A stretch of DNA of 52,869 nt, taken from Dictyobacter arantiisoli (lineage in GTDB: Bacteria > Chloroflexota > Ktedonobacteria > Ktedonobacterales > Ktedonobacteraceae). Location of the stretch: assembly GCF_008326305.1 (NCBI RefSeq), contig NZ_BIXY01000049.1:1-52869 (forward strand). Direction: 5' to 3'. Below the pieces are notes generated by a model that saw only the letters and a list, made by a program, of their open reading frames with translations, had not been told where the DNA came from and did no database searches. Shown in pieces: positions 17,012-20,554 of the stretch. How positions within the stretch are numbered: the first letter of the stretch is position 1; each line of letters begins with the position of its first letter. A program made the translations under genes and the position numbers.

Positions 17012-17315
17012 ATGCCTGCTACACGTGTAACCGCCGCAACGGAAGATTCGGAAGAAACCTTTAAGCTCTCGCGCGTCTTTGCAGCCTTCTCTAGTTTGCC
17101 ACGTATCCTGCAACTGGTCTGGTCTGCCAATGCTCCGCTAACGGTTGCCATGGCGGTTATCAGCATCTTGCGTGGCCTGACGCCTGTGGTCTCGGTAACT
17201 ATTTCTCAACTGGTAATTGATAGCGTTGTACGTGGTATACTCATCCATTCAATTGCACCCATCTGGCTGCCGGTTATTCTCCAACTGGTAGTGAGTCTGG
17301 TAGATCGTTGTTTGA
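17012..17315 (+). pseudogene. ABC exporter, 5' fragment, interrupted by IS110-family element
   Basis: The first 101 codons of an ABCB/MsbA-type exporter (fused membrane and ATPase domains). It has a cytosolic start, then RILQLVWSANAPL and a hydrophobic TM1-like segment ending in LVVSLVDRCL. GGGGAGTG lies 6 bases before the ATG. The frame runs on into IS sequence and would end as a 166-residue aberrant product at 17512. Joining 17012-17315 to 19017-20554 gives 1,842 bases, a 613-codon frame plus stop, reading VDRCLNTISQSL across the joint, so the gene was intact before insertion. Confidence 0.9.
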
Positions 17316-17346
17316 CGAATTCTCCTGAAAATAGCCGCTCCACAAA

Positions 17347-17381
17347 AGCAGGCAGCAGAGATCATGCCGTCTCTGCCTGCT
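17347..17381 (-). terminator. terminator of the IS110 transposase
   Basis: On the minus strand AGCAGGCAGAGA pairs with TCTCTGCTGCCTGCT (3-base bulge) and is followed by TTTTG. It overlaps the last codons and stop (17362) of the transposase gene. Confidence 0.6.
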
Positions 17382-18750
17382 GTAATTGGACCTGGTACCC
17401 TAATTGCTCAAGACGGCGAAGCGCTCGACGTTTGGTGGTCTCTCGCTCTTTTTCGCTGGCATACTGCTCTCCCAATTCCCGAAAAGGCTCATCCTCTTTG
17501 AGCACATGGTAAATGGTCAGCAGAATCCGATGAGCTACTGCCACGATGGCCTTTTTTCGGCCCATGCGTTGACACAAGCGTCGATAATACGCTCCCAGGA
17601 ACGTTCCTTTACTGCTGGCTGCTCCTTGTGCGGCTTCAATGAGGGCCGTGCGCAACCATCGATTTCCTTTGGTCGTTTTGCCGCTTAACCGTTTGCCTGC
17701 ACTCACCTTGTTGCCTGGACAGAGTCCGACCCAGGATGCTAATTGCTCCTGGGTCGGAAAACGATCCATCTGGATGCCGATCTCGGCGACCACGACCTCG
17801 GCGGTGCGCAGACTGATCCCCGTAATCGCATCCAGGCGCTCAATGGCTCGTCGAAGATCCTGTCGATGCTCACCCAGACGCCGCGTTTGGCCTTCTTCTT
17901 CCTCGACGATTTCCTCTGACTGAGCATCTTGTAAAGCCTCTTTGGCGGCTTGCTTTGAGGAGGGTGAAGGATCGGGGTCTTCCGGTCCGTTGCCCAGGCC
18001 TAACTGCTCGGCAATTTGCTGATCAAACGCCTCAATCTGTTGGCTTAAAAAGTCCAGGTGAGCCAGATGCTGCGAGAGCACAAAGCGATGATGCGCTCGC
18101 AGCGTTCCTTGAACAGCCTGCGCCAATTGCAGCTGCTTGCTCCGCAGTTTCCCACGTGCCATCCCTGCCAGGGTTTCCAGGTCCTGCTCTCCTTGCAGCA
18201 TCGCATGCAAGATCTGCCGAGCGGTTTTGCCGGTGATATCAGTGACCACCGAAGAGAGTTTGATATTGGCGTCTTCAAGCACCTTCTGGATCCGGTTCAC
18301 GATGCGAGCTCGTTCCTCAATCAGGGTTTTGCGCGTGCGCGTTAATTCCCGTAATTCCCGTTGGGGACGAGGAGGGATAAAGCTGGCGGTGAGTAAGCCA
18401 TGTTGAAGTAAACTGGCAATCCATTCGGCATCCTTCACATCCGTTTTGCGCCCCGGAACCGCTTTGATATGCTGCGCGTTGACCAGCAGCACCTCCATCT
18501 CCCCTTCCAGCACATTGTAGATCGGTTTCCAGAACACCCCTGTGCTCTCCATAGCCACATGAGTGCATCTCGCTCCTTTGAGCCAATCCAACAACTCCAG
18601 TAATCCTGTCGTCATCGTACTAAATGTTCGCGTCTCTTTTTTGAGATGCCCATTGGCTCCTCGAAGAAGCAAACATGCCACGATCATCTTTTTGTGAATG
18701 TCCAATCCACAACAGCGTTCAAAGACCACACTGATGAGATCTTTCTCCAT
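17362..18750 (-). CDS. IS110-family transposase (DEDD recombinase)
   Basis: A 462-residue transposase. The N-terminal RuvC-like DEDD domain has CGLDIHKK, AMESTGVFWKP and GRKTDVKDAEWIA. The C-terminal Transposase_20 domain has LDAITGISLRTAEVVVAEIG, ASWVGLCPGNKVSAGK and SGKTTKGNRWLR, which holds the catalytic serine region. Between them lies a ~45-residue acidic, low-complexity linker (PEDPDPSPSS, SEEIVEEEEGQ) that is longer than in short relatives. It is intact and therefore probably active. GGAGGAAAGC precedes the ATG. Confidence 0.95.
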   Translation of the reverse strand: MEKDLISVVFERCCGLDIHKKMIVACLLLRGANGHLKKETRTFSTMTTGLLELLDWLKGARCTHVAMESTGVFWKPIYNVLEGEMEVLLVNAQHIKAVPGRKTDVKDAEWIASLLQHGLLTASFIPPRPQRELRELTRTRKTLIEERARIVNRIQKVLEDANIKLSSVVTDITGKTARQILHAMLQGEQDLETLAGMARGKLRSKQLQLAQAVQGTLRAHHRFVLSQHLAHLDFLSQQIEAFDQQIAEQLGLGNGPEDPDPSPSSKQAAKEALQDAQSEEIVEEEEGQTRRLGEHRQDLRRAIERLDAITGISLRTAEVVVAEIGIQMDRFPTQEQLASWVGLCPGNKVSAGKRLSGKTTKGNRWLRTALIEAAQGAASSKGTFLGAYYRRLCQRMGRKKAIVAVAHRILLTIYHVLKEDEPFRELGEQYASEKERETTKRRALRRLEQLGYQVQLQQAETA

Positions 18751-19011
18751 GCTTTCCTCCTGGCAAAGGGGCTGCTTTCTTCACGCTCATGCAACCAGTT
18801 TCGCCAAGAGGATACCGTCCCATAAAGAAATTCTCCTTCGTGCTTCCCTCGTCTGGGAGCCACAGTTCTGGGTGCCTACAGGTATCCCGATCATATTTGA
18901 ACCCAGGTTTGTTCCACTAGATAAAATCTCGATCTGTGAATCTTGGCGCTGGTTCACCTCCTATTTTACCTCCTTTTCATGGTTCCGGGTGCTCCGCAGG
19001 AGCATGGACTA
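18751..19011 (-). ncRNA. candidate bridge RNA region of the IS110 element
   Basis: This 260-bp stretch upstream of the transposase has no convincing ORF of its own. On the minus strand it holds, in order, a TGCTCC/GGAGCA hairpin near the element end, a TTCAC/GTGGA stem around 18908-18945 with inner AGAT/ATCT, and a GGATACC/GGTATCC stem enclosing about 64 bases (roughly 18812-18888). Two successive loop-bearing stems match the known plan of target-binding and donor-binding loops. The RNA itself is inferred. An AGATCG in the first loop (complement of 18930-18935) also occurs in the target at 17302-17307. Confidence 0.55.
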
Positions 19012-19016
19012 TTTGA

Positions 19017-20554
19017 ATACTATTTCACAGTCCTTATTACAGGATCAGGTTGCCAATCATATTCAACTCAGCATTCTGCACAAGGCCAATACATTAGATC
19101 TCTCCTTCTTTGAGAACACCGAATTTTATGACAAATTACGTCATGCCCGGGAAGAGACGAATTATAAGCCAGTTATTCTCGTCTCAGAGATTTTCGATAC
19201 AGCACGTACACTAATCACGCTGGTCTCGATGTTAATTTTGTTACTTCAACTGGCCTGGTGGCTTATGCTGGTTGCTTTTATTATTCCGATACCATCTTTT
19301 ATTGCCAGTAGTCGCTATGGCTGGCGGCGCTACCGCAGGATGCGTGCTGAAGCGCCGGAACGGCGGAAGATGTGGTATCTGACTCATGTGTTGACGGTGG
19401 ATGATTATAATAAAGAAGTTAAACTCTTCAATCTGGGTGATTTTTTTATCGCACGCTATGTCTCGTTGATGGAGACCTTCTACGATGAGAATAAGAAGCT
19501 CATCATTCCCCGCAATCTGAGTAATTTTGCCTGGTCAGCCATTACGGTGATTGCCAACTCTTCTATCTATCTCTATGTAGCGCTCCAGGCCGTGCTGGGT
19601 CGTATTAAGTTGGGCGGGCTGGTCAAGTATACACAGGCATCCATTCAGGCCGGTACGAGCTTCCAAAGTGTCCTGGATGGCATTTCAACCATCTACGAAA
19701 ATACCTTGTATGTCAATACACTCTTTGAGTTTATGGAATACCAACCCATAATTGTTTCCCCACCGCAACCTGCTACATTGACCTTCCCGGTAGATGTACA
19801 GGGATTGGATATTGAGTTTCGCGATGTCAGTTTTACTTATCCAGGCAAGACGGAAGCTGCCCTGAGTCATATCAATTTTGTCGTGAAGGCAGGCGAATCC
19901 GTCGCGCTGGTAGGACGCAATGGGGCGGGCAAGACAACATTAGTCAAGCTACTGACGCGCCTGTATGATCCCGATGAAGGAGAAATTCTCATTGGAGGAC
20001 ATTCTATTCGTGATTATAATCTCGAGGATTTGCGTCAGCATGTGGGCGTAATTTTTCAGGATTTTGTACGCTATCATCTTACTGCTAGCGAGAATATTGG
20101 AATCGGGCGACTGGCGGAAATAGAAAACCGAGACTTCATCGAACAGTCTGCTCAAAAGAGCGGCGCGGATGCCGTGATCGAAAAGTTGGACAATGGATAT
20201 GATACGATGCTGGGACGCTGGTTTAAAGAAGGTGCTCAGTTGAGTGGAGGTGAGTGGCAGAAGGTCGCATTGGCTCGGGCATTTATGCGCGATGCTCGTA
20301 TCCTGATTCTGGATGAGCCAACCAGCGCGCTTGATCCTCAATCTGAATACGACGTCTTCACCCGATTTCGGCAGCTCACAACTGGCAAAACCGCCATTTT
20401 CATCAGCCATCGTTTCAGCACCGTACGCCTGGCGGATCGGATTATTGTCATTGAGCATGGCCGGATGCTTGAAATAGGTTCCCATCAAGAGCTTATTGCC
20501 CTGGATGGTCGTTATGCCGAACTCTTCAACCTCCAGGCCGAAGCCTATCGATAG
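19017..20554 (+). pseudogene. ABC exporter, 3' fragment (TM domain remainder and ATPase)
   Basis: The remaining 511 codons of the split exporter. TM helices lie around 19190-19300 and 19530-19590. The nucleotide-binding domain is complete: Walker A GRNGAGKTTL, Q-loop VGVIFQDF, signature LSGGEWQKVALARA, Walker B ILILDEPTSALDP, H-loop ISHRFST. On its own it lacks the first TM helix and a native start. An in-frame extension reaches back to 18698 inside the IS but starts in transposase antisense sequence. It is followed by a 20-bp hairpin. Confidence 0.88.

What the first reader, a model, noticed from the sequence alone, without database searches (positions are those of the whole stretch)
18751..19011. 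Candidate bridge RNA with two loop-bearing stems
The IS has a long non-coding end upstream of the transposase. Minus-strand folding shows an early TGCTCC/GGAGCA hairpin, a TTCAC/GTGGA stem with an inner loop, and a GGATACC/GGTATCC stem enclosing ~64 bases. In IS110-group elements this end encodes an RNA whose two loops pair with target and donor. The first loop holds AGATCG, which also occurs 4 bases from the TTTGA core in the target (17302-17307). The pairing is partial and could be chance.
Basis: partly seen in the sequence, partly recalled or inferred. Interest (0 to 1): 0.65.

Follow-up and report, generated by a model that had tools for sequence, protein, structure and literature searches.

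The report
Mirror-order bridge RNA in IS110 element
A jumping gene in this bacterium carries a small RNA whose loops spell out both the insertion site and the element's own end, so it almost certainly works as a 'bridge RNA'; its target guides lie in the opposite order to the known IS621 bridge RNA.

Summary
The non-coding left end (LE, minus strand) of an IS110-family element (17322-19011; transposase 17362-18750) encodes a bridge RNA. A covariance model built without the window finds 18796-18936(-), E=4e-10. In 38 relatives 18 of 25 pairs show two-sided changes. One segment (LTG) copies each element's own left flank (7.05/10 matches, swapped pairs 4.15+/-0.20). Another (LDG) copies its right terminus (7.75/8 vs 5.19+/-0.24). 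Fresh genomes repeat the LTG match. The core is AA (AG in most relatives), not TTTGA; AGATCG is the 5' strand of the target-loop stem. Unlike IS621 and ISEc21, the right-target guide lies 5' of the left one, the IS1111 order, although the RNA is in the LE as in IS110. Two bases 3' of the LTG core copy the donor's right side (z=7.3), a mirror of IS621's handshake guide, suggesting (inference) bottom-strand-first exchange. No right-donor guide was found. Verdict: a real bridge RNA by comparison, new variant of a known kind; expression and strand order are untested. About 13 short (~62 bp) copies carry both element ends but no RNA or gene.

The parts
17322..19011 (-). IS110-family element between its two core copies (LE is at 19011, RE at 17322)
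   Evidence: junctions of six other copies; gap-free homologues of the interrupted gene; anchor spacing in relatives
17362..18750 (-). DEDD transposase (recombinase), 462 aa
   Evidence: Pfam PF01548 and PF02371; acidic residues and serine of IS621/ISCro4 have counterparts
19012..19013 (-). core dinucleotide AA at the left junction
17320..17321 (-). core dinucleotide AA at the right junction
19014..19021 (-). left target flank; TTCA next to the core matches the LTG
17308..17319 (-). right target flank (TTCGTC...), poor match to the RTG in this copy
18990..19004 (-). LE hairpin TGCTCC/GGAGCA, five bases plus CA inside the core; also kept in the ~62-bp copies that lack the RNA, so probably an end feature and outside the mature RNA (inference)
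18796..18936 (-). bridge RNA, two-loop part found by covariance model R1
   Evidence: E=4.4e-10, window not in the training set
   Evidence: helix 1
18919..18930 (-). RTG region (GAGATTTTATCT)
   Evidence: complementarity to right flanks in the family, z=5.5, z about 7; examples
18894..18895 (-). TA 3' of the LTG core, equal to the first two LE bases after the core (candidate handshake guide)
   Evidence: family z=7.3
18896..18903 (-). LTG (GGTTCA + core AA)
18889..18892 (-). target-binding loop stem, 3' strand (GATC)
   Evidence: helix 1
18881..18887 (-). donor-binding loop stem, 5' strand (GGATACC)
   Evidence: helix 3
18840..18863 (-). inner hairpin of the donor-binding loop (GTGGCTCCC/GGGAAGCAC)
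   Evidence: helix 4
18831..18838 (-). LDG (AAGGAG + core AA); RE terminus is CAGGAG+AA
18810..18816 (-). donor-binding loop stem, 3' strand (GGTATCC)
   Evidence: helix 3

Best explanation
The left end of this IS110-family element encodes a bridge RNA. Shown by comparison: the first loop holds a left-target guide equal to the left flank plus core (LTG) and, 5' of it, a segment complementary to the right flank (RTG); the second loop holds a guide equal to the element's right terminus plus core (LDG); the fold is conserved. Inferred from IS621: the recombinase binds this RNA, the loops pair with the genomic target and with the circular donor junction (RE-AA-LE), and the DEDD and serine residues exchange strands at the AA core. 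The target loop is mirror-ordered relative to IS621, and two bases 3' of the LTG core read into the donor's right side; I infer that they stabilise the exchanged bottom strand, the mirror of IS621's handshake guides.
For: LTG tracks own left flank: 7.05/10 vs 4.15+/-0.20 for swapped pairs, 40 distinct guides. LDG tracks own right terminus: 7.75/8 vs 5.19+/-0.24, 20 distinct guides. Whole-RNA scans put each signal at a single slot. Structure: 99 two-sided changes vs 26.1+/-4.7 shuffled and 16-31 slid. Model without the window finds it. Out-of-sample RNAs repeat the LTG match. ISEc21 read by the same convention gives the published order LTG then RTG. Bases after the LTG core equal the donor's right side, z=7.3.
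Against: No expression or binding data. The window's own right flank fits the RTG poorly and its left flank fits only seven bases. No right-donor guide was found. Permutation tests do not fully remove shared ancestry, and this matters most for the RTG (z=5.5) and the two-base signal (z=7.3), since many relatives share the same flank types. Five left junctions were set by hand.
Confidence: 0.93

Rival explanations
1. The two bases 3' of the LTG core are not a handshake guide: they lengthen the LTG so that it recognises the left junction (LT-core-LE) of the inserted element during excision. The bridge-RNA reading otherwise stands.
For: They equal LE bases, which adjoin LT-core only in the inserted or exchanged state. 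PMC11187229 reports that the correct target must flank the donor for excision.
Against: Sequence cannot separate the two; both predict the same match. IS621 has analogous bases with a shown role in strand exchange (PMC11208158).
Confidence: 0.4
2. The conserved LE structure is only a cis regulatory leader or attenuator of the transposase gene, and guide matches are inherited coincidence.
For: It lies directly upstream of the gene; structure conservation alone would fit.
Against: A leader would not track the flanking host DNA of each insertion, which changes from element to element, nor the right terminus 1.5 kb away.
Confidence: 0.03
3. The target guide is AGATCG pairing with 17302-17307 and the core is TTTGA.
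For: The hexamer is present at both places.
Against: The position is a conserved stem strand; other copies and gene homologues exclude the TTTGA core.
Confidence: 0.01

Closest known systems
IS621 bridge RNA (PMC11208160, PMC11208158)
   Same: RNA in the left end; two loops, one for target and one for donor; guides include the core dinucleotide; transposase has the same acidic and serine residues; bases beyond one guide read into the other DNA partner.
   Different: IS621 order is LTG then RTG and LDG then RDG; here RTG then LTG, and the only donor guide found lies 3' of its inner hairpin. Core is AA/AG, not CT. The reading-across bases follow the LTG, not the RTG. Transposase is 462 aa, not 326-328.
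ISEc21 seekRNA, IS110 type (PMC11187229; checked here)
   Same: RNA in the non-coding region upstream of the transposase gene.
   Different: ISEc21 has LTG before RTG and LDG before a candidate RDG in my own reading; reversed target guides here.
IS1111-type seekRNAs (ISEc11, ISPa11, ISKpn4; PMC11187229)
   Same: The top-strand complement (right guide) precedes the bottom-strand match (left guide).
   Different: Those RNAs lie downstream of the transposase gene; here the RNA is upstream and the downstream non-coding end is only about 40 bp. Transposases there are 330-350 aa.
Long-transposase subgroup of IS110 (395-455 aa, includes IS110 itself; PMC11187229)
   Same: Upstream non-coding region and long transposase.
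   Different: I found no RNA described for this subgroup in the papers read; whether the window belongs to it was not tested with IS110 itself.

Membership tests
IS110 family (broad) | DEDD (RuvC-like) N-terminal domain and Transposase_20 C-terminal domain with catalytic serine | tested here: met
IS110 family (broad) | no long target duplication; insertion at a short core | tested here: met
   only AA(T) shared, homologues gap-free
IS110 family (broad) | circular intermediate with abutted ends | not testable with these tools
   needs experiment
Bridge RNA | target guides that track the insertion site | tested here: met
   LTG; RTG (weaker)
Bridge RNA | left donor guide that tracks the right terminus | tested here: met
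Bridge RNA | right donor guide that tracks the left terminus | tested here: inconclusive
   no signal in either donor-loop slot; two bases beside the LTG match instead
Bridge RNA | RNA is expressed and bound by the recombinase | not testable with these tools
   needs small-RNA sequencing and pull-down
IS110 group (IS621/ISEc21 type) | RNA in the left end, upstream of the gene | tested here: met
IS110 group (IS621/ISEc21 type) | guide order LTG then RTG | tested here: not met
   control
IS1111 group | RNA in the right end, downstream of the gene | tested here: not met
   right non-coding end is about 40 bp (17322-17361)
IS1111 group | guide order RTG then LTG | tested here: met
IS1111 group | subterminal inverted repeats of 7-17 bp | tested here: inconclusive
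   LE TGAAAA and RE TTTTCA give about 6 bp, far apart from the left tip; both invariant in relatives, so no covariation to judge
IS1111 group | transposase clade | tested here: inconclusive
   tree with few references has very long branches

The most novel reading that the evidence does not exclude
A widespread lineage of LE-type IS110 elements with long transposases carries mirror-image bridge RNAs: target guides reversed, and handshake bases beside the left guide, so that the bottom strand is exchanged first. The right donor side is read by two bases and an LE hairpin instead of a right-donor guide.
Probability: 0.3. Interest if true: 0.75.

Novelty: new variant of a known kind. Interest (0 to 1): 0.55.

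Why it matters
Bridge RNAs are programmable insertion guides. A natural lineage with the target guides in the opposite order from IS621, and with mirrored reading-across bases, gives a direct test of whether guide order sets which DNA strand is exchanged first, and suggests a different scaffold for engineering. The set of elements with read-out guides and flanks is ready for such tests. The guide-free ~62-bp copies suggest that small elements can be moved in trans by a bridge RNA.

Tried and rejected
Rfam scan of the element: nothing above chance. TTTGA/TCAAA core: would remove three residues that homologues keep. Single-sequence folding: weak. Promoter scan of the LE: nothing above chance. 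Right-donor guide on either side of the donor-loop hairpin, with or without a 1-2 nt bulge: no signal; pairings seen by eye in single elements did not hold across the family. The first LDG test failed because the window row was shifted by two columns and the core column was taken from it; redone with the GCAC anchor. Match of the bases after the LDG core to the right target: no signal. Protein tree for group membership: unresolved. The ISEc11 record was not held.

Full report
What is there. On the minus strand, 17362-18750 encodes a 462-aa transposase with Pfam DEDD_Tnp_IS110 and Transposase_20. Aligned to IS621 and ISCro4, the acidic residues (D11, E60, D102, D105 of IS621) and the catalytic serine (S241) have counterparts (the ISCro4 alignment covers the first aspartate). 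The element interrupts an ABC-transporter gene whose halves are read at 17012-17314 and 19013-20554.

Boundaries and core. Six other copies are broken by contig ends, but their junctions can be read. Left junctions read ...TTCAAATAGTCCATGC; four of the six have CAATACGGTTCAAATA there. Right junctions read ...TTTTCAGGAGAATA followed by AAAGGAATG, CCTGGAATG or ATGGGG. Only AAT(A) is common to left end, right end and target. Uninterrupted targets exist: CAATACGGTTCAAATA occurs 26 times with at most one mismatch (interrupted sites included), 0 for the reversed control pattern.

Relatives. One scan of genome contigs gave 80 loci at 45-52% protein identity, mostly Bacillota with some Chloroflexota and others. 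Those with enough upstream sequence have a comparable LE. The core could be anchored without using the RNA: five bases separate it from CATG on the left and from TTTTC on the right in nearly all; a handful of left junctions were set by hand because spacing or motif differed.

Guides. For 40 distinct LTG sequences, 7.05 of 10 positions equal the element's own left flank, against 4.15+/-0.20 for swapped pairs (maximum of 5000 permutations 4.93); the seven positions ending in the core match in 78-98% of cases. For 20 distinct LDG sequences, 7.75 of 8 positions equal the element's own right terminus, against 5.19+/-0.24. A scan over the whole RNA placed the left-flank signal at one slot (z=16.3), the right-terminus signal at another (z=12.7), and complementarity to the right flank 5' of the LTG (z=5.5). 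Examples of the last: L089 AGCTTAACG, L082 AGGAGT, L160 AGAAGG, L111 GACTGCC.

Structure. In 38 sequences RNAalifold found a target loop (stem, RTG, inner hairpin, LTG) and a donor loop (stem, about 17 nt, inner hairpin, LDG). Of 25 pairs counted, 93.1% of cells are paired, and 99 cells change on both sides, against 26.1+/-4.7 in shuffles and 16-31 when partners are slid. A model built from 30 sequences without the window finds 18796-18936(-) at E=4.4e-10 and nothing else in the window, plus three related elements in the same genome, and hits in 11 of 31 genomes, the own one included. In 11 RNAs from those relatives the longest match between guide region and own left end averages 7.7 nt, against 5.0 for swapped pairs; none of 20,000 permutations reached it.

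Order and reading-across bases. ISEc21, read with the same convention, gives LTG at 104 before RTG at 127 and LDG at 194 before a candidate RDG near 218, in line with the published target-guide order (PMC11187229) and with IS621 (PMC11208158). The family here has RTG before LTG, which PMC11187229 reports for IS1111-type RNAs, yet its RNA lies in the left end as in the IS110 group (PMC11208160). The two bases 3' of the LTG core equal the first two LE bases after the core: 1.76 of 2 against 0.95, z=7.3, top of a scan over all columns. In IS621 the analogous bases follow the RTG and meet the left donor after top-strand exchange. The mirrored position suggests, but does not show, bottom-strand-first exchange; recognition of the left junction during excision fits equally.

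This copy. Its LTG matches the genomic repeat target over ten bases (GGTTCAAATA) but its own site over seven (TTCAAAT), and its RTG fits the repeat's TAAAA better than its own right flank TTCGTC. I infer that the window insertion hit an imperfect target. The RTG region differs by one base from the six other copies (ATTTTATC vs ATGTTATC).

Limits. No expression data; no right-donor guide; tree placement unresolved. Permutations do not remove shared ancestry fully. The papers searched are open-licence only, so a description of this guide order elsewhere cannot be excluded.

Noticed in passing
L163-L175 (G000 contigs C35, C114, C55, C1, C26, C80, C17, C171, C4, C41, C30, C61, C46): About 13 short elements (~62 bp when complete, several truncated or rearranged) consist of the LE hairpin region and the RE terminus of this IS family joined together, with no RNA or gene; six follow a CAATAC(C)G-type site like the IS target. 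They look like miniature elements moved in trans; not found in 30 related genomes.
   Followed up: partly
G000, e.g. C26:60087-60102, C42:14175-14190, C107:10841-10856 (L135, L136, L139): The IS target CAATACGGTTCAAATA belongs to a dispersed repeat of unknown nature (26 sites with at most one mismatch), continued by AAAGGAATGATAAAC... or CCTGGAATGATG...; blocks of these repeats and of the short elements are mixed as a mosaic.
   Followed up: partly
L055, L056, L064, L092, L125; also L011 and L013 in the own genome: Several relatives sit directly behind a TTTTCA..GGAG-type right end, and their LTG copies it: they appear to be targeted to the right ends of sister elements.
   Followed up: no
L094 and L131: Two copies with identical RNA in one strain differ in the five bases after the LE core (CCCCC vs CATCC), which speaks against strict recognition of that side by a guide.
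   Followed up: partly
window 17012-17314 and 19013-20554: The IS splits an ABC-transporter gene; the downstream half stays open in frame through the LE from 18698, so a fusion ORF of 618 aa appears in the ORF list.
   Followed up: partly
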